The notes beneath the pieces are model-generated. The model did not search any database, was not told the DNA's origin, and saw nothing but the letters and a program-made list of their open reading frames with translations. A DNA stretch of 64,000 nucleotides, taken from the NCBI GenBank assembly GCA_002840895.1, contig PHCZ01000004.1:62001-126000 (forward strand). Reading direction: 5' to 3'. Below, one piece after another: positions 21,053 to 34,645 of the stretch. The stretch is from Bacteroidetes bacterium HGW-Bacteroidetes-8. Lineage in GTDB: Bacteria > Bacteroidota > Bacteroidia > Bacteroidales > UBA932. Within the stretch, counting starts at the first letter, position 1. Each line of letters begins with the position of its first letter. The translations under genes and the position numbers were made by a program.

Positions 21053-21841
21053 TTACTCTTCCCAAATAATACTAAGAGCCTTCCCCTTGAATGTAATACA
21101 ATGTTCAAAAAATTTTCTATGAATGTCTTCTTCCTTAACATACTTGAAAATATCCACCGCCCAAATTTCTTCTTTTTTAAACTGGCTGTCGGTAATATCT
21201 CTAAAATATTCTCCCATCACTGTATTAGGTGCTACCTTATTTTCGTATAACAAATATTGAAAAGGAAATTCTTCACTACTATATTTCCAACATATATTAC
21301 CATTTTCCCCGTATAGAATCATTATATCGTGATTCCCAATATCAGCAAATCTAAACGCACAAGCAGTTCTGCTAACGTTGTACTCATCTTTCAAAAAATC
21401 AATTAATTCTATACTGAACTTTTTGCGATAAAAGTCTTTTGAGAACCTCTCTTGGGGCATCAATAAACAAGATGCAAATAAATCTGCTTCTCGCTCGATC
21501 TGATTAAACTGCTTTTGGTTTGTTTTTGATGGATGCGGCTTCAACAATCCCTTTTTCAACCCTATTCTATGTGAGTCTATATAATAGTGCCCAAGCTCGT
21601 GAGCCAGTGTAAATCGTCCTCTTGGAGTACTAGGTCTATTTCCTAAGTCTGTGTTTATATGAATATTGAACTTCCCATTGTCATAAAAAGTCATTCCATC
21701 AAAAGTGTTCTTCCCATAACTATCGTAATATACAGACAACTCTTCATCCTCTAATATCTTATCAAGTGGTGTTATCTTCTCTGGATACTCCAATGCAATA
21801 CTTTCTGCAAGTTCCTTTATATTTGGTCTATTACGAATCAC
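21053..21841 (-). CDS. ImmA/IrrE-type metallopeptidase
   Basis: A 262-residue protein. The zinc protease motif HELGH (residues 81-85) is followed by EREAD (116-120) and FASCLLMPQERF, the ImmA/IrrE pattern. Such enzymes cleave repressors or anti-sigma-like proteins to switch on stress, mobile-element or defence genes. Its start overlaps the 113-residue gene by 11 bp, which itself overlaps the sigma-factor gene. The likely substrate is therefore a product of this operon or of a neighbour. Confidence 0.87.
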   Translation of the reverse strand: MIRNRPNIKELAESIALEYPEKITPLDKILEDEELSVYYDSYGKNTFDGMTFYDNGKFNIHINTDLGNRPSTPRGRFTLAHELGHYYIDSHRIGLKKGLLKPHPSKTNQKQFNQIEREADLFASCLLMPQERFSKDFYRKKFSIELIDFLKDEYNVSRTACAFRFADIGNHDIMILYGENGNICWKYSSEEFPFQYLLYENKVAPNTVMGEYFRDITDSQFKKEEIWAVDIFKYVKEEDIHRKFFEHCITFKGKALSIIWEE

Positions 21842-22172
21842 TAGAATCTTGGCTGTGTTTTTTTATCATTTTATCAATGATATGCTGTGGTATTTCTTTT
21901 TTTCCTTTTCTTGCGACCATTCTTAGGCTTTCTATTTCATCATCAACATCATTCTCGAAAATTGTAATAACCTTTGGTTCTCTGTGGAATGTATTATTAA
22001 TTATAGCAATGGGATCAATTGATTTATCATCCAATTTATAGTCATAATCATCAAATAACTTATTGAACCTATCAAGTTCCAGTTCATTACTTGGAAATAG
22101 AAATCCTGTAGAACTTAACCAACTGTCCAAGTGTTCTACTTCAAATAACCCTATTTTTTTAGACTTTCCCAT
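21831..22172 (-). CDS. Small protein between sigma factor and ImmA-type protease
   Basis: A 113-residue acidic protein with no family I can name. It overlaps the sigma-factor gene by 14 bp upstream and the protease gene by 11 bp downstream, so the three are translated together. By position it is a candidate anti-sigma factor and protease substrate. Its C-terminal third is basic and helical. Confidence 0.6.
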   Translation of the reverse strand: MGKSKKIGLFEVEHLDSWLSSTGFLFPSNELELDRFNKLFDDYDYKLDDKSIDPIAIINNTFHREPKVITIFENDVDDEIESLRMVARKGKKEIPQHIIDKMIKKHSQDSSDS

Positions 22173-22842
22173 TGGTAATGTTTAAATAGTTATGAACGTG
22201 TCTGTTAGCATCTCCATAATATGTGTTCACGGATTTTTGGGTTAGTGAAAGTTTTTCTCTTAATAGTTTGGTAATTGTTCTGGGTACTTTTTTACCCTCT
22301 TTTTGGTAGGCTCGGTATGTAAAATATATGATTCGATGTTTCTCTGTCAATTGTGCAAGAGCATTCTCGATGGTTTTCAATTTGGCGACTATCTCTCTTT
22401 TGGCCTCAATATTTTCAATATTCAGAGTATCAACCAATTCTTCTGCATCATTTACTAAACTTAAATCTTCCTCCTCTGTTGGTTCTGCGCAATTGTTCTG
22501 TTTGCCATATTTAATTATTTGGGTGTATAGAATTCGATACATCCAAATAAGTATCCCTTTGTCCAAATCTTTGGCCTTAGACTTCTCTTTATCAAAAGTA
22601 GGATACTTCCATACTCTAGCAAAAGTACAGTTTGCTATTTCCAAAGCAACCACCTCACTATATCTATATTTATTACAATATATCTCAGACTTCTGTTTTA
22701 TATCCTTACCAAAACGATAACAGAATTGCACAAAAGCCAATTGGGCTTCAGCAGGAAATTCTTCTTTAAAAGAAATATACTCTAGCAGTTCAACGCTAGG
22801 CATTTTCTCAAAATCTATGTTTTGATTCGTATCTGTATTCAT
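22159..22842 (-). CDS. Sigma-70 family RNA polymerase sigma factor
   Basis: A 227-residue protein. The region-2-like part runs through CNKYRYSEVVALEIANCTFARVWKYPTF with GILIWMYRILYTQIIKYGK. Region 4 is at about 165-220: ALAQLTEKHRIIYFTYRAYQ, then an HTH ending in TQKSVNTYYGDANRHVHNYL. This matches the two-domain (ECF-type) layout. An 8-bp inverted repeat lies directly upstream of the start (22844-22879). Probably the regulator of the operon it heads. Confidence 0.72.
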   Translation of the reverse strand: MNTDTNQNIDFEKMPSVELLEYISFKEEFPAEAQLAFVQFCYRFGKDIKQKSEIYCNKYRYSEVVALEIANCTFARVWKYPTFDKEKSKAKDLDKGILIWMYRILYTQIIKYGKQNNCAEPTEEEDLSLVNDAEELVDTLNIENIEAKREIVAKLKTIENALAQLTEKHRIIYFTYRAYQKEGKKVPRTITKLLREKLSLTQKSVNTYYGDANRHVHNYLNITNGKV

Positions 22843-22986: not shown

Positions 22987-23112
22987 ATGGCAAAGGATTC
23001 ATCTGGCAAAAAATTCAACAGAATACCAGAACACAAAAGAAATGTAGGTGGTAAAATAATTACCGTTAAAGAACACATTAGAAGCAACAGAAAAGACAGC
23101 AAAGGGAAATAA
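22987..23112 (+). CDS. 41-residue basic protein
   Basis: ATG at 22987 and TAA at 23110-23112 give MAKDSSGKKFNRIPEHKRN and a further 22 residues rich in K, R, H and G. The pattern (MAK, GKK, basic, H-x-RSN) is shared with the 33-residue product at 27573-27674 in the transposon, so the frame is probably real. Function unknown. It lies 226 bp before the CBASS operon. Confidence 0.5.
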   Translation: MAKDSSGKKFNRIPEHKRNVGGKIITVKEHIRSNRKDSKGK

Positions 23113-23338: not shown

Positions 23339-24085
23339 ATGTTGGAATTTTTACTAAAAATAATTTTTGCTAGATCTGTAGCTAAACTATGGGAAAATAA
23401 AGACTTACTAGATCTTTACCTAAAAACACTTTTCGGTAAATATCGAAATAAAGAGATTAGATTTTCGATTAGTTATCTTTTTAAAATCCAAATACCAGGT
23501 ACTGATAAATATTTACTTGTGTTGAACAGAAGAATAGAAAATCAATTACAGCCGGTGGGCGGTGTTTATAAGCGCTATGGTGACGACAAACTCTTTAATG
23601 AATGGGGGTATTCACCTGACAATAAACACAATGGATTAGATGTGGATTCAGAGAGTGATGGTGATTTAAGATTTAAAGTTATTGGGAAAAATGTCGTCAA
23701 AGTCATTAAATGGTTTGACGAAGGAAAAGAAAGAGAGGTTAGTGCTGATAGAGAATTTAATGAAGAACTCATTAATACTTCTATTATGAATGCCCACGTA
23801 TTTAGGCAAATAAAATATAAGCATATTAGACGATTTTCAAAACACTTAAAATGGAGTGAGTTCTTTAGTTGTTATGAAGTTCTTGTTTTTGATGTCTTCG
23901 AGCTACTTCCAAATGAAGAACAAAAAGAAGCGCTTAAAACTTTGAGCCAAAATAAAAACAATCTGAAAAATGGTTATGCTATTGTCAGTTCTGATGATAT
24001 CAGACAGTTACGATTTATGGAAAACGGTAAACAAATTGCTCGTATTGGAGCGCAAACTAAATTATTAATCAACCAAAAATTTTAA
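23339..24085 (+). CDS. CBASS-associated NUDIX-domain protein (Cap16-NUDIX-like)
   Basis: A 248-residue protein matching the SMODS-associated NUDIX family: LFKIQIPGTDKYLLVLNRR, LQPVGGVYKRYGD, and the NUDIX-type REFNEELI box. Cap16 effectors usually carry two transmembrane helices before this domain; no convincing membrane helix is seen here. The CD-NTase gene starts 4 bp after the stop, so it is the first gene of the CBASS operon. It may bind or hydrolyse the cyclic-nucleotide signal; whether it is the sole effector is unclear. Confidence 0.72.
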   Translation: MLEFLLKIIFARSVAKLWENKDLLDLYLKTLFGKYRNKEIRFSISYLFKIQIPGTDKYLLVLNRRIENQLQPVGGVYKRYGDDKLFNEWGYSPDNKHNGLDVDSESDGDLRFKVIGKNVVKVIKWFDEGKEREVSADREFNEELINTSIMNAHVFRQIKYKHIRRFSKHLKWSEFFSCYEVLVFDVFELLPNEEQKEALKTLSQNKNNLKNGYAIVSSDDIRQLRFMENGKQIARIGAQTKLLINQKF

Positions 24086-24089
24086 AAAA

Positions 24090-24929
24090 ATGATAGACTT
24101 ATTTAATAATTACAGACTACAACGGGAAGAACTATTAGCACGAATAGCGCAAGAACTTCAGTTAGACAAAACAAGGATTGAAAGAATGGAAAGAGCATAT
24201 CATTCAGTAGCAGAAGTATTAAAAAAAGATGATGATTTCTTCAATGATTTAGAAATTGAAATTTACGCTCAAGGTTCAAAAAGGATTGGTACCACAGTAA
24301 AACCCATAAATGATGAAGATTTTGATTTAGACACTGTTCTTCATATATACGATCTATATTATAATCATTCGCCGGAGATAATCTATAATGCCTTGAGAAA
24401 AGCTTTAGAAAAGAATCCTTATTATAAATCAATAATGGAAAGAAAGGCCAGATGTGTTAGACTTAATTTTAAAAGCGATTTTCACATGGACATATTGCCG
24501 GCTTGTATGCCCACTAGTTTTGATAAAGAAAAAATCAAAATTCCTGAAAGAGGACTGAAAAATTGGTCTACTGCAAACCCAAAAGGCTTTGCAGGCTGGT
24601 TTCTTACAATAGCTAATTCATTTGACACTTCCTTGTTAAAAATGCACTCTAGGGAGTTATTAGAAGCTAAAGTTGAATCAGAACCATTGCCTGATGAACT
24701 CTACTTGAAAACCCCTCTTCAAAGAGCAGTACAGCTCATAAAACGATATAGGGACATTTACTTTGAAAATAAAGATTATCGGGTTTCAAGTATTGTTATT
24801 ACTACACTTGTAGCAGAACTCTATAATGGCGAGGGTTCAATTTTTGATGCCATTGATAATATTACTCAAAAAATAAAAGATAGTTATACAGTCTCTATTA
24901 AAGCAGGCAAAAGATTTAAAGTTTGGTAA
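24090..24929 (+). pseudogene. CD-NTase (CBASS signal synthase), N-terminal part, interrupted by transposon
   Basis: The frame encodes 279 residues of a CD-NTase/SMODS enzyme: QGSKRIGTTV (GS at 62-63), DEDFDLDTV with the catalytic Asp pair, and DFHMDILPACMP with the third acidic residue. It runs into an IS1595-type element at 24925 and ends at a TAA in the element's inverted repeat. The missing C-terminal helices are encoded at 28743-29080. Joining 24924 to 28743 gives FKVFNPVNPDEDF in frame. The truncated protein keeps the active site but lacks a normal C-terminal part, so loss of function is likely but not certain. Confidence 0.88.
24917..24924. repeat. 8-bp target-site duplication, left copy
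   Basis: TAAAGTTT, identical to 28735-28742. This is the expected 8-bp duplication for IS1595-family insertion. Confidence 0.9.
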
Positions 24930-24991
24930 TGATATAGTATTTAGACCCAATTAAATAAATATTTTACTGAAGGGTTGAACGTCGATTTTTT

Positions 24992-25195
24992 TCAGTCCTT
25001 TTTTTCTTTCTTCAAATATCTTCTCACATAAGACGGCATAGTCCAAATTATTGCTAATATAGATATACCACCCGAAACAATTCCCGCCCAAAAAGTAACA
25101 CAAAGGTCGTAGTATTCTCCAAAACCAATAGAAAGTATTGAAATTAAATAAATACCAACAGGTACATTGATTTTTGGGATTTGAAAACTACTCAT
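24992..25195 (-). CDS. 67-residue two-helix membrane protein (transposon passenger)
   Basis: Two hydrophobic segments (about residues 11-25 and 32-53) with a basic C-terminus (RRYLKKEKKD). It overlaps the preceding lysine-rich ORF by 8 bp and is the last gene of the passenger operon, ending about 43 bp from the left inverted repeat. No family recognised. Confidence 0.55.
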   Translation of the reverse strand: MSSFQIPKINVPVGIYLISILSIGFGEYYDLCVTFWAGIVSGGISILAIIWTMPSYVRRYLKKEKKD

Positions 25196-25316
25196 CCTTT
25201 TTCTTTTTGGATTTATCCTTCTTTTCCTTCTTTTCTAGTTCCTCAACCTCTTTAGGGTCGGTTTGAAGGAAACGGCGCATAGTTTCGTCTAAACTTTCTT
25301 CTTTTTTCTTGCTCAC
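25188..25316 (-). CDS. 42-residue lysine/glutamate-rich protein (transposon passenger)
   Basis: The GTG start at 25314-25316 overlaps the TGA of the upstream gene (GTGA). The product opens MSKKKEESLDETMRRFLQTD and ends in a lysine run before TAG at 25188. It overlaps the 67-residue gene. The interlocked starts and stops support translation, though composition alone is weak evidence. Confidence 0.45.
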   Translation of the reverse strand: MSKKKEESLDETMRRFLQTDPKEVEELEKKEKKDKSKKKKDE

Positions 25317-25912
25317 AGATTAAATTCTTTAGGAAACATTTTTAATTGAACATTAAGGTCGTATTTAGCAGTATATTTCAATTCAAACTCATACCAAGTT
25401 TTACATTCTTTCATTACTGCAATAGCTTGGTTAATGAAGTTTTCCATAAGCAATAAACCTTCATCGTTTAAAAACTGAAATAATTTATATTTTTTCACAT
25501 GACCGTAAAGAACAGGATTCTCTATTTTCAATAAAGTAGGAAGCACATCTTTATCAAATCGGGCATAAATGAACTGCTTTATCCAAAGGGCGCACACCGG
25601 TGGCTTATTAAAGTCATTCGGATTTATATCATGCCATTGGTTCAACTTGTACATAAGAGAGAAAAAGGGCTTTCTATTTGGGAACATAGGAGCATATTTA
25701 CCTACTATATTACTTATAACATCCTTTTCTTGTTTTAGCGTTGTTACCCTGCCGTCTCTAAGGTAGATTTTTTCTAACTCTATGTCAACATTTTTTTCAG
25801 GGACTAATGCTTCTGTTCTTAGAAATAATTCCTGTTGCTCCTGTTTATCATGAATTATTTTTAATTCGTCCTTAATGAAGCCTTTCTTTTGTTCTTTCTT
25901 TTCCTTTGCCAT
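25313..25912 (-). CDS. P63C-domain-like protein (transposon passenger)
   Basis: A 199-residue protein. The second half fits the P63C domain pattern: YAPMFPNRKPFFSLMYKLNQW, IYARFDKDVLPTLLKIENP, KYKLFQFLNDEGLLLMENFINQAIAVMKECKTWYEF. The N-terminus is lysine-rich. P63C proteins occur in phages and mobile elements; the function is unknown. The gene follows the protease gene by 2 bp. Confidence 0.6.
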   Translation of the reverse strand: MAKEKKEQKKGFIKDELKIIHDKQEQQELFLRTEALVPEKNVDIELEKIYLRDGRVTTLKQEKDVISNIVGKYAPMFPNRKPFFSLMYKLNQWHDINPNDFNKPPVCALWIKQFIYARFDKDVLPTLLKIENPVLYGHVKKYKLFQFLNDEGLLLMENFINQAIAVMKECKTWYEFELKYTAKYDLNVQLKMFPKEFNL

Positions 25913-25914
25913 AA

Positions 25915-27165
25915 TCAGAGAGTATTATAATTGAGGTTCTTATTTCGGGTTTGACAAACAACTTTCAACGGCTTAAAATTGTCGTACAGGTCAAAACTAA
26001 AGTTATTCAAAAGCCTGCTAAAATCTTCTTTTGGGAAAAATCGATTAAATCGACCGTATGCCTTACTATCGCCATAATCCCATAAGTAAAAAACGTATAT
26101 TAGGCTCGGATGTACGTGGTTAAGACGAGCAAATTCTTCAATGTAATCAGAGTTGTGAATGTGAGGAAGTATAGCTTTCATTTTCTCATCTGGAAAAAGA
26201 TATTGTCGGGCGAAGTTGTCTGCCTCATCTTCGTCAATACCTATAGTATGAATTGCTAATCCTGACTGATTGTCTTTGCTGGAGTCTATAGAAAAATGCT
26301 GCTTCTCTCTTAGAATAATTTCCCAATCATATAGCACATGGAATAACTCGTGAACCAATGCAAACCATATTGTGGGGTAAAATTGTGTGTACTTAGTTAA
26401 GGCAATACAAGGTTTACCACCATGACTAAATGTTACCGCTCGGATATGTACATCTTGATTGTATTTGGGGACTACGATAAGTGTAATCCCTAACTTGAAA
26501 AGTTTTTGAGCAACAACGGTAAGACCATTTTCAACATCCATACAGTGCCACCTAATCTTAGGGAAATAATCTATTAAGCCCTCCCTATCATATTCATAAG
26601 GGTTAGGTGTTCTGTCAATACTTTCCTTTACAGCTGCATACCAAAACTGTAAATTTCTATGGTTTGTTTTTCGTTTAGCAGAACTAAACACGCCGTCAAT
26701 GTGATGTTTTTGATGCTCAAAAATACTATCATATCCAAAAAAGGAATTTATCCTGTCTTCGATTTCCTCAAAATCGTTTATGCTTTTAATAAACCCTATT
26801 TTCTTTAGGCTGGGAAGGTCAAAATAATTTACAATGAAATTACGCTTCTTAGTAAGTTCGATGCTTTCGTTATAAGAATCTAATGCAAGGTCAAAATATT
26901 TCTCAATCAAAATATCATGCGGAATATCTAAAAAGTCAGACATTTTTAGAATTGAAACAAAGTCGATTTTTTTAGAATCACCTTCTAAAAAAGCATCTAA
27001 AGTTTTATTGTCCCAATCTAAAATTTTACACGCTTGATTTTTAGTTATTGATAAATACTCAATACGCTGTTCAAACAACTCTTTAATCTGAAATGTATTT
27101 ACCCTATCATCTTTACTAAAAAGACGATTTAATAACTTATCTACATCTTTATGACGGTTGTTCAT
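25915..27165 (-). CDS. HTH-ImmA/IrrE metallopeptidase (transposon passenger)
   Basis: I place the start at 27165 (MNNRHKDVDK). The longest frame begins at 27195, but that ATG overlaps a promoter -7 box (27193-27200). The 416-residue protein has an N-terminal Xre-like HTH region (ITKNQACKILDWDNKTLDAFLEGD). A long middle section precedes the zinc protease motif HELFH and DEDEADNFARQYLFPD, the ImmA/IrrE signature. It heads a four-gene operon inside the transposon and may regulate it by cleaving a repressor. It is not closely similar to the ImmA-type protein at 21053-21841. Confidence 0.82.
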   Translation of the reverse strand: MNNRHKDVDKLLNRLFSKDDRVNTFQIKELFEQRIEYLSITKNQACKILDWDNKTLDAFLEGDSKKIDFVSILKMSDFLDIPHDILIEKYFDLALDSYNESIELTKKRNFIVNYFDLPSLKKIGFIKSINDFEEIEDRINSFFGYDSIFEHQKHHIDGVFSSAKRKTNHRNLQFWYAAVKESIDRTPNPYEYDREGLIDYFPKIRWHCMDVENGLTVVAQKLFKLGITLIVVPKYNQDVHIRAVTFSHGGKPCIALTKYTQFYPTIWFALVHELFHVLYDWEIILREKQHFSIDSSKDNQSGLAIHTIGIDEDEADNFARQYLFPDEKMKAILPHIHNSDYIEEFARLNHVHPSLIYVFYLWDYGDSKAYGRFNRFFPKEDFSRLLNNFSFDLYDNFKPLKVVCQTRNKNLNYNTL

Positions 27166-27192
27166 ATCTGGAATATTAGAAAAATATCTGCA

Positions 27193-27219
27193 CAAATATA
27201 ATCAAAAATACCAACAAAA
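27193..27219 (-). promoter_or_regulatory. Bacteroidota-type promoter of the passenger operon
   Basis: On the minus strand a TATATTTG -7 box (27193-27200) and TTG-type -33 sequence (near 27213-27219) precede the HTH-ImmA gene. Transcription would start near 27186, which decides for the internal ATG at 27165. Confidence 0.5.
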
Positions 27220-27232
27220 ACAGGTGTTAATA

Positions 27233-27262
27233 AAAAAGTTTAGAAAAAAATCTAAACTTTTT
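27233..27262. terminator. Bidirectional terminator-like hairpin
   Basis: A 12-bp perfect stem (AAAAAGTTTAGA and its complement) around six A. Runs of T follow the stem in either direction. It sits between two divergent promoters, so it may insulate them or act as an operator. Confidence 0.5.
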
Positions 27263-27272
27263 CAAATTATCG

Positions 27273-27280
27273 TATATTTG
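27273..27280 (+). promoter_or_regulatory. -7 box of the rightward tRNA-like / small-protein unit
   Basis: TATATTTG matches TAnnTTTG exactly. A transcript from about 27287 would run through a GC hairpin, the tRNA-like sequence, the pseudoknot and the 33-residue gene. Confidence 0.45.
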
Positions 27281-27292
27281 TTTTTAGAGAAT

Positions 27293-27323
27293 AAAAAACC
27301 CCGATGTGCGGTCGGGGTCAATT
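27293..27323 (-). terminator. GC-rich hairpin with T-run on the minus strand
   Basis: ACCCCGA (27298-27304) pairs with TCGGGGT (27312-27318). On the minus strand it is followed directly by TTTTTT (27293-27298), a canonical intrinsic terminator. On the plus strand CAATTTTT follows, a weaker version that could attenuate the tRNA-like unit. Confidence 0.6.
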
Positions 27324-27343
27324 TTTGTTATGTGTAATTAGAA

Positions 27344-27417
27344 GGGGCAGTAGCTCAAATGAATAGAGTATTTGGTGTCGTACCCAAAGGTTACGGGTTT
27401 GAATCCCGTCTGCCCTT
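27344..27417 (+). tRNA. tRNA-like gene with 8-nt anticodon loop
   Basis: The cloverleaf folds fully: acceptor GGGGCAG/CTGCCCT (one G-T pair), D arm GCTC/GAGT with a 9-nt loop, anticodon stem TTTGG/CCAAA, 4-nt variable loop, T arm ACGGG-TTTGAAT-CCCGT. The anticodon loop is TGTCGTAC (27376-27383), eight rather than seven bases. If U33 is 27378 the anticodon is CGU (Thr); if 27376, GUC (Asp). The D loop lacks the usual GG pair and the T loop has TTTGAAT instead of TTCGAAT. CCA is not encoded. It may be a decaying tRNA, a frameshifting tRNA, or a tRNA mimic carried by the transposon. Confidence 0.6.
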
Positions 27418-27427
27418 CTTCTAATAC

Positions 27428-27435
27428 AAATATAC
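27428..27435 (-). promoter_or_regulatory. Candidate promoter antisense to the tRNA-like gene
   Basis: CAAATATA on the plus strand is TATATTTG on the minus strand. A transcript would cross the tRNA-like gene in antisense and meet the strong minus-strand terminator at 27293-27318, giving an RNA of about 125 nt. No clear -33 element was found. Confidence 0.3.
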
Positions 27436-27515
27436 GTTAAATGTTGCTAAATGTTGCAAAGCGTAACACAATTTAACACAGTATTAAAACAAAACCCCTG
27501 CTGTAACAGAGGTTC

Positions 27516-27546
27516 AGCCGAAACTCTTACGGCTTGGTGTTAAGAG
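27516..27546 (+). promoter_or_regulatory. H-type pseudoknot upstream of the 33-residue gene
   Basis: Stem 1 AGCCG/CGGCT (27516-27520 with 27530-27534). The hairpin loop contains CTCTTA (27524-27529), which pairs perfectly with TAAGAG (27541-27546), forming stem 2. It ends 26 nt before the ATG at 27573, the right place for translational control. It resembles small pseudoknot riboswitches in shape only. Confidence 0.45.
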
Positions 27547-27572
27547 CAATATTAACCTTAATCTTTACTATT

Positions 27573-27674
27573 ATGGCAAAGACAAATGGGGGCAAAAAAA
27601 AAGTTTATGTAGCCCCACACCGCAAGTCTAATGGCACAAAGGTAAAACCTCATTACAGGTCAACACCGAACTAA
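27573..27674 (+). CDS. 33-residue basic protein (transposon passenger)
   Basis: ATG at 27573, TAA at 27672-27674. The product starts MAKTNGGKKKVYVAPHRKSN and ends HYRSTPN. It resembles the 41-residue product at 22987-23112 in layout. A structured leader lies upstream and a strong terminator downstream, which supports a real expressed gene. Function unknown. Confidence 0.55.
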   Translation: MAKTNGGKKKVYVAPHRKSNGTKVKPHYRSTPN

Positions 27675-27688
27675 AACGTCATTAGTTT

Positions 27689-27720
27689 AAAGAGGGGGTT
27701 AATAACTCCCTCTTTTTTTT
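27689..27720 (+). terminator. Intrinsic terminator after the 33-residue gene
   Basis: AAAGAGGG (27689-27696) pairs with CCCTCTTT (27708-27715), followed by an unbroken T run to 27720. It also lies just past the stop of the converging transposase gene. Confidence 0.75.
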
Positions 27721-27726
27721 GCAATA

Positions 27727-28668
27727 TTAGTTGTTTTTTATCAATTCTTCGTACTTCAATCGTTCTCCTTCACTATTAGTCATTGCAAGAGCCATTCTTG
27801 AAGAGGCGTTCATATTCCTTGTATTGTATCTAAACTCAAATTCATTCAAATAAGCCTGTAAGTGCTTTTTACTTGTCCAATGGTAGATGCCGTGAACACC
27901 TCTTTTAAACAAAGACCAAAAGCCTTCTATTGTGTTTGTGTGAACTATACCATCTACATACTGTCCTTTCCCATGCTTGATGATATAATGTGAGTAATTT
28001 TCAGAAAGACCGTTATAGCCCCACCATTCATCGCTCATAATTGTTGACCCTGCTGAAACGTTTTTCCCGATAATTGGCTGTATAGTCTTTCCTTTGGTGT
28101 CTTTTACGTACTGAACAATTATATCCCCACCTCTTTTTACCATTCCAAGAACAGGGGCTTTGGTTGAAACTGAACGCCCTTGTGTTCCTTTTACCCTTTT
28201 AGAAAGATGTTTGTTCTTTTCTTTTCCACCAATGTAGCTTTCATCAACCTCAATAATACCGTCCAAAGGTTGATTAAACGATTTCGTGCGGATAATCAAC
28301 CTTATACGGTGCAACATAAACCAAGCTGTTTTCTGTGTAACCTCAATATCCCTTGATAATTGATGTGATGAAATACCTTTCTTGTGTGAAGTAGCTAAAT
28401 ATATTCCTAATAACCACTTTCCAAGTTTCACGTTAGAACCTTCAAAAACAGTTCCTACTTTTACGGTAAACTTTTTTCTACATTCTGAACACTTGTAGTA
28501 AACACCGTCTTTAAAGGTGTATATTTTTTCAGAATGGTTACAATGCGGACAAAACGGCTTTCCGTTCCAACGCCAATGAGCAAACAACTTGTTACAAGCT
28601 ATTTCGTCATTTGCGATTCTAGATACTTCTAATAGGGAATTAAATTTGGTTTCGGTAACTTTACACAT
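27727..28668 (-). CDS. IS1595-family transposase (ISXO2-like DDE)
   Basis: A 313-residue transposase with an N-terminal zinc ribbon (C40, C43, C60, C63 in CPHC and CSEC) and a DDE-type core: IIEVDESYIGGKEK, IMSDEWWGYNGL and VHTNTIEGFWSLFKRGVHG. Length and motif order match intact family members, and no frameshift is seen, so it may be active. Its promoter seems to overlap the right inverted repeat. Confidence 0.93.
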   Translation of the reverse strand: MCKVTETKFNSLLEVSRIANDEIACNKLFAHWRWNGKPFCPHCNHSEKIYTFKDGVYYKCSECRKKFTVKVGTVFEGSNVKLGKWLLGIYLATSHKKGISSHQLSRDIEVTQKTAWFMLHRIRLIIRTKSFNQPLDGIIEVDESYIGGKEKNKHLSKRVKGTQGRSVSTKAPVLGMVKRGGDIIVQYVKDTKGKTIQPIIGKNVSAGSTIMSDEWWGYNGLSENYSHYIIKHGKGQYVDGIVHTNTIEGFWSLFKRGVHGIYHWTSKKHLQAYLNEFEFRYNTRNMNASSRMALAMTNSEGERLKYEELIKNN

Positions 28669-28690
28669 AACTTATTGATTTTGCACATAT

Positions 28691-28722
28691 CAAATATACA
28701 ACAAATATTTGGGTCTGCAAAA
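28691..28722 (-). promoter_or_regulatory. Transposase promoter overlapping the right inverted repeat
   Basis: On the minus strand TTTTG (within the terminal repeat, about 28717-28722) is spaced 19 bp from TATATTTG (28691-28698). This fits the Bacteroidota promoter layout and would let the transposase regulate itself by binding its own end. Confidence 0.5.
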
Positions 28723-28734
28723 TATATCATTACC

Positions 28735-28742
28735 TAAAGTTT
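28735..28742. repeat. 8-bp target-site duplication, right copy
   Basis: TAAAGTTT, identical to 24917-24924 and directly abutting the right inverted repeat. Confidence 0.9.
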
Positions 28743-29080
28743 TTAATCCGGTGAATCCCGATGAAGATTTTACAGATTCCTGGTCCCAAAATCATTATGA
28801 TAGCTTTTATAACTTCATATCTGATTTTCACAAAAAATGGCAAAATCTGAAAAACTCATTTGAAACAAGTAATTCAGATTACATTGAGTTGTTTGGTGAA
28901 GGTATTTATAAAAAGTCACTCACTGAACAAATTACTATGTACTCAAAAAATTCTGATGATGATCTCACACGTTTTACAGGGTTAATCATTGGAAATAATG
29001 CAATGACAGATTCTAAAGGAAACATTAATGTAAATACCGGTATAAAGAATGAACCTCATCACAGCTTTGGAGGCAAGTAG
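28743..29080 (+). pseudogene. CD-NTase, C-terminal part, cut off by the transposon
   Basis: The frame continues the CD-NTase from the N-terminal fragment. After the junction it reads FNPVNPDEDFTDSW, a stretch typical of CD-NTase C-termini, then a helical segment ending HHSFGGK. It has no start codon of its own except ones supplied by the transposon end. Removing 24925-28742 restores a protein of about 391 residues. Confidence 0.85.
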
Positions 29081-29489
29081 AATATCTGAAATTAAGAAAA
29101 ATTGGTTTGTGTTTTTAAATACCGAAAAATCACTTGTAGAAAAACATTTTGAGTGGCTAGATTTAAAGATACTCACCAATAAAAAGATTCTATTTGGTAA
29201 AGGAACTTTATATTTTAAAAACAAAAGTTATGATATAGAACTTTACTATTCACCTTTTTTCAACTTTCGATATGATAGAATTTCTATTAAAGACAAGTCT
29301 ATTAAATACAGTGATGCTATTCATCTTTACAAGGATATGACTTTATGTTTGTACCATCCCCTAATTGATAAACCTTTATTACGGGGTATACCATTGTATA
29401 AGATGATTCCCTGGATTATCGAATGGATAATTCTCTATGAAAAATATAAACAATATGGTGTATGGTTAGGTAAAGAAATTAAACATTAA
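29049..29489 (+). CDS. E2-like protein of short type II CBASS
   Basis: A 146-residue protein with the prokaryotic E2-like pattern: YYSPFFNFRYDRISIKD, an IHLYKDMTLCLYHP block with candidate catalytic C100, and the ending PWIIEWIILYEKYKQYGVWLGKEIKH with spaced Trp/Tyr and a final His. In short type II CBASS such an E2 acts on the CD-NTase. It overlaps the CD-NTase C-terminal fragment by 32 bp. The transposon now separates it from the operon promoter. The annotated start could be slightly further downstream. Confidence 0.7.
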   Translation: MNLITALEASRISEIKKNWFVFLNTEKSLVEKHFEWLDLKILTNKKILFGKGTLYFKNKSYDIELYYSPFFNFRYDRISIKDKSIKYSDAIHLYKDMTLCLYHPLIDKPLLRGIPLYKMIPWIIEWIILYEKYKQYGVWLGKEIKH

Positions 29490-29979
29490 TGGAATATAAA
29501 ATATATAGTTCTTAATTTATCCAAGGTATTAATGTCTAATAACAATTGGTCATCTCAATTCCCCGGGTTGCAAAATCCAGCGCCCTCATTCCATGCTCAC
29601 GTAGGCGGGCATCTCGTCAATCAAACCCCAATCATAAATACATTAACACTCTGTATTATTAACCCATTCCGGGCTTCCTCTGTCTTTTGCAACCCTCCGC
29701 GCGCCCCACTTCTGTGGTTTTTTGCGGCCCCCACTGAGCCCTGTCGAAGTGTCACGATTTTTGCCCCAACACTAATGCAGCCCCAGCTAGTGTGCGATTG
29801 CATCGCGTTCTCCTAGAATTCATTCCCCCGCAAGTGCACAATTGAATCGCGATCTACATATTTAAGTACTTCTAGGATAAATAATCTCAATAATCATTTT
29901 TATAAAAAATTAGCTCTTCAAAAGAAAAGAACCTGTTATTGAAAATAAAGGCTAGTAAAAAAGGGGTTGTTCCTCTAGG
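29490..29979. other. Gene-free stretch with dispersed repeat fragments
   Basis: No gene seen. It holds AACAATTGGTCATCTCAATTCCC (29540s), similar to 20058-20080. A GCGCGCC to TTTTTTGCG block near 29698-29733 and CACGATTTTTGCCCC (29752-29766) recur at 36955-37002. CACTGAGCCCTGTCGAAGTG (29733-29752) is of the kind widespread in Flavobacteria. Two CGATTG/ATCGCG palindromic motifs lie at 29792-29855. This looks like a repeat-rich end of the defence island. Confidence 0.6.
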
Positions 29980-30354
29980 CTAGTTAGTATGCCATGCTCT
30001 TAAAACACTAATGTCCAGACGTTGTAAATTATCAAGAATATAATCCGCCAGGATCTTTTCACTACTTGCAGAACTAATACTTTTTGAAGTTAATTGAATG
30101 ATCCCATTAGGGTCGCCAAATATATTGGCTTCATCACATTCTATATAAGGATAATATTTACCTTCATTTTTAGCAGCATCAGGTAAAACATCAAAACTCT
30201 TGATACCATACTTTTTTAAAAAGTCTGCAAGAAATCTCACATACGTCCGTTTTTTGCTTTTTAAAAATTGGCGATGGATATAATCCAGTGTATCTGTTTT
30301 TGGTTCCCTCAAAGCGGCTGCCAAAGCCTGTTCCAATATAACTGCTCTTGTCAT
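29980..30354 (-). CDS. Hypothetical protein
   Basis: A 124-residue soluble protein with no recognised family: helical N-terminus with a basic stretch (LKSKKRTYVRFLADFLKKYG), then YYPYIECDEANIFGDPNGIIQLTS. A clear promoter (30404-30411) on its strand and a palindrome shared with the HelD-type gene lie upstream, so it is likely expressed. Confidence 0.5.
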   Translation of the reverse strand: MTRAVILEQALAAALREPKTDTLDYIHRQFLKSKKRTYVRFLADFLKKYGIKSFDVLPDAAKNEGKYYPYIECDEANIFGDPNGIIQLTSKSISSASSEKILADYILDNLQRLDISVLRAWHTN

Positions 30355-30377
30355 TAAAGTAAGGGTTTGTGAATCAT

Positions 30378-30461
30378 ACCAAGTAGCACGACTTGGTAAA
30401 GGGCAAATATAAATAGAATAAGTTTAACAAGGTATTTTTTAAGACTTGTTTTATATTTGCC
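30378..30461. promoter_or_regulatory. Divergent promoter region with nested palindromes
   Basis: Minus-strand TATATTTG at 30404-30411 serves the 124-residue gene; plus-strand TATATTTG at 30452-30459 serves the HelD-type gene. The two boxes lie in a 12-bp perfect inverted repeat (GGCAAATATAAA, from 30402, and its complement ending 30461). A separate hairpin ACCAAGT/ACTTGGT is at 30378-30397. Confidence 0.55.
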
Positions 30462-30518
30462 ACTTTCATATTTCAAAGGGGTTTACACAGTCCTTAATCC
30501 CGTTTCAATACCTATACT

Positions 30519-32567
30519 ATGACTGAAGAAAAAAAAGAGCAAAAACATCTTCAAGTCCTTATCCACAAAGTTGATCAGGCAATCGACAAAATTAATACCC
30601 GCATTCAAAAGCAATCCAACGAAATCAACGACCTTAAAACCCATTTACAAGAGCATAAACGCGATATGGATCACCTTGAAAAAAATGCCGTAAGGGAATC
30701 TGTATATAATGTAGCCTTACAAGGGGATCATTCTGTTGACAAAAAAAAGAGGTTGCTAAGGTTAAAAAACATACCCTATTTTGGTAGAATCGATTTTAAA
30801 GAAAATACCAAAAAAAAACCGGCACCCATTTATATTGGTGTCCACAATTTTCAAGACGAAGAGAGCCATCAAAACCTAGTCTACGACTGGCGGGCACCCA
30901 TTTCCAGTATGTTTTATGATTATGAAACAGGAGAGGCTGCCTATGAGACCAGGGATGGGGAAGTTCAAGGGCATATCTCCCTTAAACGACAATTTCGCAT
31001 CCGCAACGGAAATATGGAATATATGATTGACAGTGATGTGACCATTCAGGATGAAGTGCTTCAAAAAGAACTCAATCAAGCTTCCTCTGGCAAAATGAAA
31101 AACATTGTAGCTACCATTCAACGGGAGCAAAATACCATCATTAGAAATGAAAACGCTAAACACCTAATCATTCAAGGGGTAGCAGGATCGGGCAAAACAT
31201 CCATTGCACTTCACAGGATAGCTTTCCTGCTCTATAAATTCAAAGACACAATTACCTCTCAAGACATCCTTATCATTTCACCAAACAAAGTCTTTGCAAG
31301 CTACATCTCTAATGTACTCCCTGAATTGGGAGAAGAAACAGTAGCCGAAACCAATATGGAAGAGATTGCACAACAACTCTTCGACTACCAAATGAATTTT
31401 AGGTCCTTCTATGACCAGGTGGCTGAACTGCTCGAAAAAAACAACCAAAAATTCATTGAGCGCATCCAATTTAAATCCTCGGTAGATTTGATTAAAAAAA
31501 TGGACGATTACTTGCTGTTTCTCGAAAATAACGGGTTTAAACCCATTGATATATTTGTCAATAAAAAACCGATACCGGCCTGGTTTATTGAAGAGAAATT
31601 TAAACAATACAGCCGCCTGCCCCTATTGAACAGGTTTAATGAGGTGGTACGCGAAATTGTCAATAATGTCTGGATGTATTACAACTATGAAGTCCAAGGC
31701 AAAGAACGAACAGAATTACACGCAACCATCAGAAAAATGTTTCCCTCCACCAATCTGCGAAAACTCTACAAAGGGTTTTATGAATGGTTAGGTGAACCTG
31801 AATTGCTCAAAACACGTAAAGGCAACGTCTTTGAATACAGTGATGTATATCCTTTGCTCTACCTTAAAATGAAACTCGAAGGCCTAAAACCTTTTACAGA
31901 TGTAAAACACTTGGTCATTGATGAAATGCAAGACTATTCTGCAGTACAATATAAAATTCTAAATAAACTGTTCAATTGCAAAAAAACCATTCTCGGCGAC
32001 ATCAACCAATCGGTAAACCCTTTTAGCGCTTCAAATATGGATACAATTGCCGATATTTTCACTGATGCCATTGCCATGACAATGACCAAAGGCTATCGAT
32101 CAACTTATGAAATAACCCAGTTTACAAAAAAAATAAGCCAAAATGTAAATGTGGAGCCCATTGAAAGACACGGTGAAGAACCAAAAATCTTGAAATGTAA
32201 AAATGAAGAAGAGGAACTCAACACCATCAAAAACGAACTCAAAAATTGGGATACCAAAAAGTTTAAATCATTGGGTATTATATGTAAAACACAAAAGGAA
32301 GCCAATGCACTCTATGATGCAATTGACCAACATCATCAAGTGCAACTTCTCAACGCACTAAGTGTTGCTTTTGGAAGTGGTATTGTCATCACAACGGCAC
32401 ATCTCGCCAAAGGCCTTGAATTTGATCGGGTCATTGTACCGTTTGTTACAGAAAATAACTATAAAACACCATCAGACAGACAAATGCTTTATGTAGCCTG
32501 TACCCGGGCAATGCACAAACTTATGCTTACATACTCAAAAAAACCATCAACTTTTATAAACCGTTAA
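30519..32567 (+). CDS. helD: HelD/HelR-type UvrD-like ATPase
   Basis: A 682-residue protein: N-terminal coiled coil (about 10-70), then VYDWRAPISSMFYDYETGEAAYE typical of HelD, Walker A GVAGSGKTSIALHR, HLVIDEMQDYSAVQY (motif II), GDINQSVNPF (III), KGYRSTYEI (IV) and TTAHLAKGLEFDRVIVP with YVACTRAMHKL (V-VI). HelD proteins release RNA polymerase from stalled complexes and can protect from rifampicin. The methyltransferase gene follows after 2 bp. Confidence 0.9.
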   Translation: MTEEKKEQKHLQVLIHKVDQAIDKINTRIQKQSNEINDLKTHLQEHKRDMDHLEKNAVRESVYNVALQGDHSVDKKKRLLRLKNIPYFGRIDFKENTKKKPAPIYIGVHNFQDEESHQNLVYDWRAPISSMFYDYETGEAAYETRDGEVQGHISLKRQFRIRNGNMEYMIDSDVTIQDEVLQKELNQASSGKMKNIVATIQREQNTIIRNENAKHLIIQGVAGSGKTSIALHRIAFLLYKFKDTITSQDILIISPNKVFASYISNVLPELGEETVAETNMEEIAQQLFDYQMNFRSFYDQVAELLEKNNQKFIERIQFKSSVDLIKKMDDYLLFLENNGFKPIDIFVNKKPIPAWFIEEKFKQYSRLPLLNRFNEVVREIVNNVWMYYNYEVQGKERTELHATIRKMFPSTNLRKLYKGFYEWLGEPELLKTRKGNVFEYSDVYPLLYLKMKLEGLKPFTDVKHLVIDEMQDYSAVQYKILNKLFNCKKTILGDINQSVNPFSASNMDTIADIFTDAIAMTMTKGYRSTYEITQFTKKISQNVNVEPIERHGEEPKILKCKNEEEELNTIKNELKNWDTKKFKSLGIICKTQKEANALYDAIDQHHQVQLLNALSVAFGSGIVITTAHLAKGLEFDRVIVPFVTENNYKTPSDRQMLYVACTRAMHKLMLTYSKKPSTFINR

Positions 32568-32569
32568 AT

Positions 32570-33190
32570 ATGAAATGTCCTTTATGCTTCACCATGCTAA
32601 GGGTTTTAAAAGATCCCCTTTACTATGATTGCCAATTTTGCAAGGCTTTGGTCAAAAACCACAAACTATTACCCTCAAAAGAGGAAGAAATTCAACGGTA
32701 CAAATCTCACAATAACGATGTAAACGACCCGCGTTATCAAAAATTTACAGCTCCTGTTTGGCAGTATATCTTAAATCATTGCAAGCCACAACATAATGGT
32801 TTGGATTATGGATCAGGAACCGGGCCTGTAATCTCAAAAATGCTTTCAGATCAAGGGTATCAAATCAAACAATATGACCCCTATTTTTGCCGTGACTCAT
32901 CGGCTTTAAATAATAAATACCATTACATCGCTTGCTGTGAAGTAGTTGAGCACTTTTTCAGCCCTATAGAAGAATTTGTAAAACTGGATAAAATGCTACT
33001 CCCAGGAGGTATATTTGTGGGAATGACTTTATTGTATAACAACGCTGTAGACTTTGAAAAATGGGCATACAGAAAAGACCAAACCCACGTTTTTATCTAC
33101 AGAAAAGAAACCATTAAGTTCATTGCCAACCAATTCAATTACCAACTGCTTGAACTCACTGACAGGTTTTTTGTCTTCAAAAAAAACTAA
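32570..33190 (+). CDS. Zinc-ribbon SAM-dependent methyltransferase
   Basis: A 206-residue protein with an N-terminal CPLC and CQFC zinc-ribbon pair, then a class I methyltransferase core LDYGSGTGPVISKML (motif I), YDPYF and CCEVVEHFFSPIEEF. Substrate unknown. It is co-transcribed with the HelD-type gene and converges with the DksA-like gene 10 bp away. Confidence 0.8.
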   Translation: MKCPLCFTMLRVLKDPLYYDCQFCKALVKNHKLLPSKEEEIQRYKSHNNDVNDPRYQKFTAPVWQYILNHCKPQHNGLDYGSGTGPVISKMLSDQGYQIKQYDPYFCRDSSALNNKYHYIACCEVVEHFFSPIEEFVKLDKMLLPGGIFVGMTLLYNNAVDFEKWAYRKDQTHVFIYRKETIKFIANQFNYQLLELTDRFFVFKKN

Positions 33191-33200
33191 AATTAGTTTA

Positions 33201-33527
33201 TTAACGCGCACATTGCACACACAAACGGCTTTCCGGGCGTATGAGAAGTCGCCCCTCAGGGATGGGCTTTTTACATTTTACACAAATACCAAAATCTGAA
33301 TCATTCAACCTGTCCAAAACGTAAGACAATTGCTGCAAACGCTTTTTGGCTTCAAACAAGGCTGCATCATTGACACTTTTGTTATTGATGGCATCCATAC
33401 GCGATACCCGGCCTATCGCATCATCTGGTGCTACAGCTTGGGTCATGCCTTCATACAATTTGACTGCATTTTCAAGTTTATGAATCTCTTCAAACACTTT
33501 TTCTGTAAATGCTAATTTATCGATCAT
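33201..33527 (-). CDS. TraR/DksA-type zinc-finger protein
   Basis: A 108-residue protein: helical hairpin N-terminus, then DSDFGICVKCKKPIPEGRLLIRPESRLCVQCAR, the DksA C4 zinc finger and its preceding D-x-D-F-G turn. It would act in the RNA polymerase secondary channel. Short for DksA but typical of Bacteroidota TraR/DksA proteins. Confidence 0.87.
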   Translation of the reverse strand: MIDKLAFTEKVFEEIHKLENAVKLYEGMTQAVAPDDAIGRVSRMDAINNKSVNDAALFEAKKRLQQLSYVLDRLNDSDFGICVKCKKPIPEGRLLIRPESRLCVQCAR

Positions 33528-33554
33528 AAATTTTTATTTTAAAATTACTTAAAG

Positions 33555-34645
33555 TTACTTGGATTTTCGAACAACATAGGAATATAATTTTATCTCCCGG
33601 GTTTCAAATGCAGCTATCAAAATGGATAAATAATAGTTCCACTTTCGGTAAAATCGCATTTCACGATCTGTCCTGATCTTACCACTATGCTTTCTGAAAT
33701 TTTGCTGCCACGCAAGTAACGTCTTTACATAATTTGGGTTTAAATGCTCCATTTCTTCAAAACAAAATGCTTTTCAACCAATCCTATCGTTTGTGCCAAA
33801 CGGCGCAGTGGCCGATGCTTAGGTAAAACAAAATCATTTAAAAGGGCACTTTGATTGTTTCCGCTTTTTCCACTTGAGAATAAATCAAAAACCCCAATTC
33901 CGGTACGCTTAAGTTTAAAATCTACAGTCTCCATAAATGCTTTATAATTCATAACACCACCATCGTCATATTGCTGAAGGCTAACTATTTTATCAAAAAC
34001 TCCCTTTATTTCCCTTTGGTCTTTTAGTACTATTGTAATAGGCAATCCCTTACATAGCTTTGTGGCATAAGCATGTTGCTGTTGTGATTGGGTAACACCC
34101 ACTACTTTAACCCCATAATGTTTGGCTGCATAAAAAGCCAATCCTCCCCATCCACAACTCATATCCAATAAAGTCTCATCTTTCTTAAGTTGCAGTTGCT
34201 CACATACAGTAAGCAATCGTTGTTCCTGCGCTGTGTTTATATCTGATACACCCTGCCAATCACCACTTTGATAAAGCAAAAAACTCCCAAGCATCTTTTG
34301 ATAAAAAGGATAATCCGCTGCTTCACGATGCAAACAAGCCTGCAAATCTTCTTTTCCCGGAAAGCGCATAAATAAATTGTCTTGTAGTTCTAGGCTCCAC
34401 AAACGCACTTGTTGATTTGCCTGTTGTTCTACTTGATAATCAAAAACACGATTGAAAAAACGATCCAACCTTTTACATTCCCACCAACCTTCCACATAGC
34501 TCTCCCCTAAACCCCGGGCGCCATCTTTCAAAATGCGCCTGTAAAAATCAGGATGATAAACACGTATATCATAGGGCTTTTGACCCTCAATTGTAATTCC
34601 GGCTTGCTCCAATAAGTTTTCAATAATTTCTTTATAGGGGTTCAT
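33555..34645 (-). pseudogene. Cyclopropane-fatty-acid synthase-like gene, frameshifted
   Basis: Two frames together match CFA synthase. 33740-34645 carries the N-terminal part with YVEGWWECKRLDRF and the SAM-binding LDMSCGWGGLAFYAAKHYG. 33555-33752 carries the C-terminal NPNYVKTLLAWQQNF to RFYRKWNYYL. They join if one A/T is restored in the 4-base run at 33759-33762 (minus-strand TTTT), giving HFVFEEMEHLNP. Besides the frameshift, the family's E-H-V-G and H-T-I-G active-site segments are replaced (SLQQYDDGG, DLFSSG), so the protein was diverged before breaking. Confidence 0.75.

What the first reader, a model, noticed from the sequence alone, without database searches (positions are those of the whole stretch)
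24090..29489. CBASS signal synthase cut by a cargo-carrying IS1595 transposon, with the original frame recoverable
The CD-NTase frame stops inside an inverted repeat at 24925 and resumes at 28743. An 8-bp duplication (TAAAGTTT) flanks the element. Deleting the element plus one duplication gives an in-frame junction (KVFNPVNPDEDF). This shows a recent loss or reversible switching-off of a defence system by an element that brings its own putative regulatory or defence genes. The truncated enzyme keeps its catalytic residues and could still make signal without normal E2 control.
Basis: seen in the sequence. Interest (0 to 1): 0.75.

Follow-up and report, generated by a model that had tools for sequence, protein, structure and literature searches.

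The report
Jumping gene interrupts phage-defence enzyme gene
A mobile DNA element that carries its own passenger genes has landed inside, and split, the signal-making enzyme gene of a bacterial anti-phage system; the insertion is real, but it is an ordinary kind of gene inactivation and nothing shows that it works as a switch.

Summary
An IS1595-family element of 3,810 bp (24925-28734) sits between two copies of TAAAGTTT (24917-24924, 28735-28742). Its 26-bp ends match at 22 positions and its transposase frame is open. It splits the cyclase (CD-NTase) gene of a CBASS locus: Sa_NUDIX effector, cyclase, E2, with a divergent CapH/CapP-like pair. Searched apart, the two pieces match consecutive parts of one cyclase profile (1-281, 279-392 of 393); in 7 of 10 uninterrupted homologous ORFs both hit in order.

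Most likely: an IS1595 element with passengers transposed into the gene and inactivated it. 'Reversible' is not supported: passages of one review describe such excision as possibly copy-leaving, and no other allele was found in 24 same-genus genomes, many incomplete. 'Truncated enzyme still signals' is not supported: about 28% of the profile is missing, tail included.

Cargo: an HTH-M78 gene (PD-Lambda-2_B profile, 4.6e-21) next to a P63C gene, a pair also on five Hymenobacter plasmids. It is not a PD-λ-2 system: A and C were not found. Six of 44 distinct related elements carry DNA methylase or restriction genes. A tRNA-like passenger is unexplained.

The parts
21053..21841 (-). CapP-like ImmA/IrrE peptidase (CBASS-type regulator)
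   Evidence: PADLOC PDLC04141 capP E 3.6e-61
21831..22172 (-). CapH-like repressor
   Evidence: PADLOC PDLC04142 capH E 5.2e-13
23339..24085 (+). CBASS effector with SMODS-associated NUDIX domain
   Evidence: PF18167 E 2.8e-60; PADLOC PDLC00693 2TM effector E 5.8e-93
24090..24929 (+). N-terminal piece of the CD-NTase (cyclase) gene, 279 aa; most of the last codon and the stop codon come from the element
   Evidence: PF18144 E 1.1e-18; PADLOC PDLC00815 positions 1-281/393, E 1.9e-132
24917..24924 (.). target-site duplication, left copy (TAAAGTTT)
24925..28734 (.). IS1595-family element with passenger genes (tIS), 3810 bp, ends 22/26 alike
24992..25195 (-). passenger ORF, 67 aa, hydrophobic, no family match
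25313..25912 (-). passenger gene, 199 aa, P63C domain; starts 2 nt after the upstream stop
   Evidence: PF10546 E 7.3e-7; spacing
25915..27195 (-). passenger gene, HTH-like plus M78 (ImmA/IrrE-like) peptidase with HELFH; an ATG start at 27165 is more likely than the listed TTG
   Evidence: PADLOC PD-Lambda-2_B E 4.6e-21; H272, E273 and H276 invariant in 9 aligned relatives; Pfam M78 below cut-off
27344..27418 (+). passenger tRNA-like gene with 8-nt anticodon loop (ARAGORN 'tcgt')
   Evidence: ARAGORN; RF00005 49.2 bits
27573..27674 (+). passenger ORF of 33 aa followed by a terminator-like hairpin
   Evidence: tblastn relatives on 2 plasmids; hairpin 27689-27715
27727..28668 (-). IS1595-family transposase, 313 aa
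   Evidence: PF12762 E 1.1e-48; NCBIfam NF033547 223 bits, cut-off 75
28735..28742 (.). target-site duplication, right copy (TAAAGTTT)
28743..29080 (+). C-terminal piece of the cyclase gene (ORF 28709-29080, whose first codons are element DNA)
   Evidence: PADLOC PDLC00815 positions 279-392/393, E 3.1e-37
29049..29489 (+). E2-like conjugating enzyme of CBASS, single cysteine at residue 100
   Evidence: PADLOC PDLC00862 E2 E 1.4e-47

Best explanation
An IS1595-family element with passenger genes (a 'tIS') transposed into the cyclase gene of a CBASS locus that has an effector, a cyclase and an E2. It duplicated 8 bp of target and so split the gene. SHOWN from sequence: the insertion, the duplication, the open transposase frame with its whole Pfam domain, the continuity of the two cyclase pieces, and the absence of other lesions in the effector and E2 frames. 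INFERRED: the locus no longer makes its signal. The first piece lacks the last quarter of the enzyme and its C-terminal tail, and the element carries terminator-like hairpins on the + strand (27298-27318, 27689-27715), so the E2 gene downstream is probably poorly expressed too. INFERRED: the element spreads by copying and keeps passengers that serve the element or host. The HTH-M78/P63C pair is probably a stress- or phage-responsive regulator or toxin-antitoxin-like module. This is an ordinary loss of function, not a switch.
For: Exact 8-bp duplication and inverted ends; 1 hit in 40 shuffled draws of loci over 9 kb against 33 of 55 real loci over 9 kb. Transposase families PF12762 and NF033547. 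46 of 109 other transposase loci gave a delimited element with 8-bp duplications; in 41 of the 46 both ends begin with GG as here, many continuing much like this one. The cyclase pieces give consecutive profile hits: PDLC00815 1-281 then 279-392 of 393, PDLC00816 9-277 then 293-406. In 7 of 10 distinct uninterrupted homologous ORFs both pieces hit the same ORF in order. The closest, on a Sutcliffiella horikoshii plasmid, reads straight through the site and is followed by an E2 gene and a CBASS phospholipase. One copy of the element and one cyclase match in the held genome.
Against: No allele of the same species or genus to compare with: 0 of 24 other same-genus genomes have a cyclase match. 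Three of the 10 homologous ORFs matched only the first piece. Loss of function is inferred, not measured. The genome is a metagenome-assembled one (record title), so the insertion might be fixed or might be one variant of a mixed population.
Confidence: 0.87

Rival explanations
1. Reversible switch: the element excises precisely and restores the cyclase, so CBASS is phase-variable.
For: The duplication is intact and both halves are undamaged, so nothing in the sequence excludes it.
Against: One copy only, and no related flank in the genus in which an empty site could be seen. Passages in PMC5704250 say that excision of IS1595-type elements might be replicative, leaving the copy in the original site. 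No second recombinase was recognised among the four element ORFs scanned.
Confidence: 0.04
2. The 279-residue first piece is still an active cyclase that escapes E2 control (gain of function).
For: The GSxxxxT motif at residue 62 and the acidic motifs at 77 and 131 lie in the first piece.
Against: About 112 of 393 profile positions are lost. The block right after the break (N-P-x-N...W) is found by a strict pattern in 4 of 10 intact homologous ORFs, so it is common but not universal. [quoted passage not shown]
Confidence: 0.06
3. Assembly error: unrelated contigs joined at a repeat.
For: The genome is a draft MAG in 22 contigs.
Against: A misjoin would not be expected to give an 8-bp duplication exactly at matched inverted ends typical of the family, nor consecutive halves of one gene on the two sides.
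Confidence: 0.03
4. Defence exchange: the cargo (HTH-M78 plus P63C) is itself a defence module, so the insertion swaps one system for another rather than simply losing one.
For: The M78 gene matches PD-Lambda-2_B at 4.6e-21 and, weakly, capP and RmrA models. The M78-P63C pair is on 5 Hymenobacter plasmids. 6 of 44 distinct related elements carry DNA methylase or restriction genes.
Against: No PD-λ-2 A or C partner. The window's P63C gene matches only families of unknown function; a P63C protein of a related element (L039) also matches a phage anti-repressor family, and the M78 gene matches a phage transcriptional-regulator family, so a purely regulatory role is as likely. No phenotype can be tested here.
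Confidence: 0.2

Closest known systems
IS1595-family insertion sequences with passenger genes (tIS; e.g. MTnSag1/tISSag10 and tISCpe8, named in PMC5704250 passages)
   Same: IS1595 DDE transposase, inverted ends of about 25 bp, a target duplication, passenger genes inside (their duplication length was not in the passage seen)
   Different: Passengers here are an HTH-M78/P63C pair, a tRNA-like gene and small ORFs; none of 46 other delimited elements has a tRNA call inside, and tblastn with the M78 protein against the loci then held hit none of the transposase loci other than the window's own (lists cut at 24 rows)
CBASS type II short (E2 only), with Sa_NUDIX effector and CapH/CapP regulators
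   Same: Effector, cyclase and E2 in order, E2 overlapping the cyclase end; CapH/CapP-like pair divergent
   Different: Cyclase split by the element; a weak sigma-70-like gene (22159-22842) overlaps the CapH gene; cyclase ends in Lys, where the passages of PMC11153139 name Ala or Gly as typical
PD-Lambda-2 (three-gene anti-phage system; PMC9519451 passages)
   Same: Second component is an Xre-type HTH fused to a peptidase, as here
   Different: No match to the other components; partner is P63C instead
Cyclase and E2 genes on Sutcliffiella horikoshii plasmid NZ_CP082921.1
   Same: Uninterrupted cyclase of 374 aa, 40% identical to the first piece, then an E2 gene (PDLC00876 E 5.4e-61)
   Different: Effector is a phospholipase, not Sa_NUDIX

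Membership tests
IS1595 family | IS1595-type DDE transposase with zinc ribbon | tested here: met
   PF12762, PF12760; NF033547 223 bits, cut-off 75
IS1595 family | 8-bp target duplication (recalled as typical) and short inverted ends | tested here: met
   the same in 46 of 109 related loci
IS1595 family | Transposition activity | not testable with these tools
   single copy in the genome
CBASS, E2-only type II | CD-NTase of the SMODS/DncV kind | tested here: met
   gene is interrupted. NCBIfam cyclase models are matched below their cut-offs
CBASS, E2-only type II | E2-like gene next to the cyclase with a catalytic cysteine | tested here: met
   PDLC00862; single Cys100, catalytic role inferred; no Pfam or NCBIfam match
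CBASS, E2-only type II | Recognised effector | tested here: met
   Sa_NUDIX, PDLC00693
CBASS, E2-only type II | No E1 (Cap2) or JAB peptidase (Cap3) gene beside it | tested here: met
   six ORFs from 29532 to 34645 scanned with PADLOC: no E1 or Cap3 model among the rows shown (one ORF's list cut at 25 of 28); five ORFs upstream of the effector likewise
CBASS, E2-only type II | Working signal synthesis | not testable with these tools
   gene split; inferred lost
CapH/CapP regulators | HTH repressor plus ImmA/IrrE peptidase next to an immune operon | tested here: met
   PDLC04142 and PDLC04141
PD-Lambda-2 | Component B (HTH-peptidase) | tested here: met
   PDLC03982 E 4.6e-21, residues 82-367 of 426
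PD-Lambda-2 | Components A (HigB-like) and C | tested here: not met
   no PADLOC match for the 67-, 199- and 33-aa passengers at E up to 10

The most novel reading that the evidence does not exclude
IS1595 elements of this clade act as small carriers of defence genes (restriction-modification sets, and an HTH-M78/P63C module). Here one such carrier replaced a resident CBASS with its own system, so that defence genes displace one another by single transposition events. The element also carries a tRNA-like RNA of unknown role, possibly with an antisense transcript.
Probability: 0.18. Interest if true: 0.6.

Novelty: new member of a known kind. Interest (0 to 1): 0.34.

Why it matters
It is a clean, fully delimited example of how an anti-phage system is lost: one transposition, both halves still present. 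The cargo adds a lead. An HTH-M78/P63C gene pair occurs on plasmids and in an IS1595 element, and related elements carry restriction-modification genes. If such carriers are common, defence turnover could be driven by very small transposons as well as by large islands.

Tried and rejected
Looked for the element elsewhere in the held genome: one full copy; the only other match was a host tRNA-Arg. Looked for other cyclase alleles: 0 of 24 other same-genus genomes and 1 of 16 genomes of other genera of the order (31% identity); 7 of 344 others in a class-wide draw, best piece 38% identical; viral contigs, none. The upstream flank has only short matches in the genus and the downstream flank matches 2 of 24 others at 66-77% in pieces away from the cyclase. 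P63C in viral contigs: none with that query, although later showed P63C passengers in two loci fetched by the transposase. L005 first looked like a second genome with the same element; it is the window's own contig, identical over 11,248 bases.

tRNA passenger: no similar DNA in the phage or plasmid collections; 0 of 295 other genomes of the phylum with the anticodon-arm pattern at up to 3 mismatches; 0 exact in viral contigs; none inside the 46 other delimited elements. Loci L030 and L040 have tRNAs and an undelimited transposase and could not be judged. I did not adopt a working four-base-decoding tRNA: in my reading of the loop position 33 is G, not U, and a seven-base loop with one mismatched stem pair would read as anticodon TCG.

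A PD-λ-2 system was rejected because components A and C were not found. Structure prediction was not used. Papers: PMC9519451, PMC11153139, PMC5704250 and PMC13373217 were seen as passages only. In the listings (titles and abstract starts only; one search gave no paper) I saw no report of an IS1595 element carrying defence genes or of a CBASS gene cut by an element; those papers were otherwise not opened, apart from PMC5704250, and the library is open-access only.

Full report
WHERE IT IS. The window matches 100%, over 11,248 bases, a contig titled 'MAG: Bacteroidetes bacterium HGW-Bacteroidetes-2'. The held genome has 2.9 Mb in 22 contigs. It is a metagenome-assembled genome; that it comes from groundwater is recalled, not from a call.

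THE OBSERVATION. The insertion is there as described. The 8-bp repeat TAAAGTTT occurs at 24917-24924 and 28735-28742. Between the copies lie 3,810 bp whose first and last 26 bases are inverted copies at 22 of 26 positions. The cyclase frame ends in a TAA provided by the element's end. As a chance control I applied the same rule (exact 8-mer, inverted ends alike at 16 of 24 and 11 of the first 14 positions, within 5 kb of a transposase match) to 40 draws of loci over 9 kb with shuffled flanks and found 1 hit. Of 117 held loci with a transposase match, 8 are copies of the window's own element; of the other 109, 46 gave a hit, and of the 55 of these 109 that are over 9 kb, 33 did. Loci from whole genomes have only about 1.5 kb of flank, so misses there mean little. 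Two pairs among the 46 are identical (L035/L036, L058/L059), leaving 44 distinct; a third pair (L085/L093) is 94% identical. A few boundaries may still be chance.

THE ELEMENT. The transposase is IS1595 family by Pfam and NCBIfam. Its best matches are 54% identical in the viral contigs and about 50% over most of its length in 392 other genomes of the order; two Bacteroides plasmids share 72% DNA identity over part of the gene. In 41 of the 46 delimited relatives both ends begin with GG; the five others are L082 and four more distant genome loci (L112, L116, L124, L128), whose ends are of another type. The genome holds one copy. A Bacteroidota-type promoter match (-33 TTTG, -7 TAnnTTTG; consensus recalled) for the transposase overlaps the right end (28691-28721, minus strand). 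One search found 9 such matches in the window with 4.9 expected, and 9 of 100 shuffles reached 9, so the match alone is weak evidence.

THE TARGET. Upstream of the cyclase is an effector gene with an Sa_NUDIX domain; downstream and overlapping is an E2-like gene. A CapH/CapP-like pair, known elsewhere as a DNA-damage-responsive control of immune operons (PMC13373217 passages), lies divergently upstream. No E1 or Cap3 model appeared for six ORFs downstream. The cyclase pieces were searched apart. The first matches PADLOC cyclase PDLC00815 at 1-281 of 393 and the second at 279-392. Among 10 distinct uninterrupted homologous ORFs, both pieces hit the same ORF in order in 7, and only the first piece hit in 3. 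The intact gene on a Sutcliffiella plasmid reads straight through the site and is followed by an E2 gene. The solved structure 9woo_A (396 aa, 'Cyclic GMP-AMP synthase') matches the first piece in two stretches within 7-292 and, weakly (E 0.04), the second at 297-333. In the plasmid collection the first piece matches 146 records and the second only the Sutcliffiella one.

WHAT THE INSERTION DOES. The first piece keeps the GSxxxxT and acidic motifs but loses about 112 profile positions and the tail. In the type II system of PMC11153139 (passages) a change of the last residue abolished immunity; [quoted passage not shown] So the likely result is loss, not escape from control. The element also carries terminator-like hairpins on the + strand at 27298-27318 and 27689-27715; 6 terminator-like sites were found on both strands, 1.9 expected. 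Transcription through to E2 is therefore probably reduced; that is inference.

WHY NOT A SWITCH. [quoted passage not shown] No other allele of the cyclase was found in 24 other same-genus genomes, of which about half are under 90% complete or over 5% contaminated (12 of 25, own included, pass both). Precise restoration is possible in principle but nothing here favours it.

THE CARGO. The largest passenger has the HExxH motif of M78 peptidases (HELFH) and matches the PD-Lambda-2_B profile at 4.6e-21, with weaker matches to capP and RmrA models; it also matches a phage transcriptional-regulator family (phrog_2439, 2.6e-9). Pfam M78 itself is below its cut-off (16.6 against 22 bits). Two bases after its stop starts a P63C gene. 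M78 relatives are on 19 plasmid records. P63C relatives are on 5 Hymenobacter plasmids, in each of them directly after the M78 relative: 1 to 5 bases apart in four and 46 bases apart in one, by the annotation; on H. qilianensis the M78 match spans two annotated ORFs. M78 relatives on a Pontibacter and an H. tibetensis plasmid are followed by an annotated hypothetical protein that the P63C search did not hit, and L007 and L009 from other genomes by small ORFs with no PADLOC or PHROG match. P63C proteins also occur as passengers in two other delimited elements, L038 and L039; the L039 one also matches a phage anti-repressor family. PD-λ-2 has two further components (PMC9519451 passages) that were not found here, so the cargo is PD-Lambda-2_B-like in one gene only. 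Its function is unknown; a toxin-antitoxin-like or phage-responsive role is inference.

OTHER ELEMENTS. One search listed 88 passenger references of 70 aa or more; I left out the 6 of L005, L036 and L059 (own or duplicate) and scanned 82 proteins, the two from the window included, against PADLOC and Pfam (the PADLOC table showed 25 of 130 families). I looked at 30 of the 82 singly. DNA methylase or restriction domains are in L025, L028, L035, L041, L054 and L055, that is 6 of 44 distinct elements, and these account for the methylase and nuclease rows. 42 of the 46 come from a viral-contig collection, so the share is biased.

THE tRNA-LIKE PASSENGER. At 27344-27418 lies a tRNA call (49.2 bits), closest in the genome to tRNA-Arg(ACG) at 79% over 61 bases, with an 8-base anticodon loop. 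It lies within matched flanks (inverted repeat 27267-27291/27416-27440). The minus strand has a promoter match at 27427-27460 and a terminator-like hairpin at 27319-27297; the minus-strand 133-nt RNA folds better than all 200 shuffles (z -4.9), while the plus-strand tRNA alone has z -2.0. The longer stretch contains the terminator hairpin, so the two scores are not like for like. Which strand is the product is open.

VERDICT. A true, well-delimited insertion of a known kind of element into a known kind of defence gene. The likely effect is inactivation. The cargo is the more interesting part and is not resolved here.

Noticed in passing
27344-27418 (+) and 27288-27420 (-): A tRNA-like gene with an 8-nt anticodon loop inside the transposon, 79% like the host tRNA-Arg(ACG) over 61 bases; the minus strand has promoter-like and terminator-like sites and a strong fold (z -4.9). 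No relative found.
   Followed up: partly
27573-27674 (+) and 22987-23112 (+): Two short basic ORFs (33 and 41 aa) look alike (42% over 33 aa, E 0.04, so weak), one inside the transposon and one upstream of the CBASS operon; unannotated relatives of the first on a Synechocystis and a Marinobacter plasmid.
   Followed up: partly
L025, L028, L035, L041, L054, L055: Related IS1595 elements with 8-bp duplications carry DNA methylase or restriction genes as passengers (6 of 44 distinct delimited elements).
   Followed up: partly
22159-22842 (-): A weak sigma-70-like gene (TIGR02985 E 3.5e-5, below its cut-off) overlaps the start of the CapH-like gene, as if it formed one operon with CapH and CapP; no PADLOC match.
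   Followed up: no
L053:7082-8014, L077:7050-7988, L102:7113-8018: DUF3800 proteins recur as passengers of related IS1595 elements (3 of 82 passenger proteins).
   Followed up: no
L007:2643-3152, L009:2636-3106, L172:4173-4679, L173:4211-4711: Other HTH-M78 relatives are followed by a small gene that does not match P63C, suggesting exchange of partners; these small genes were not aligned with each other.
   Followed up: partly
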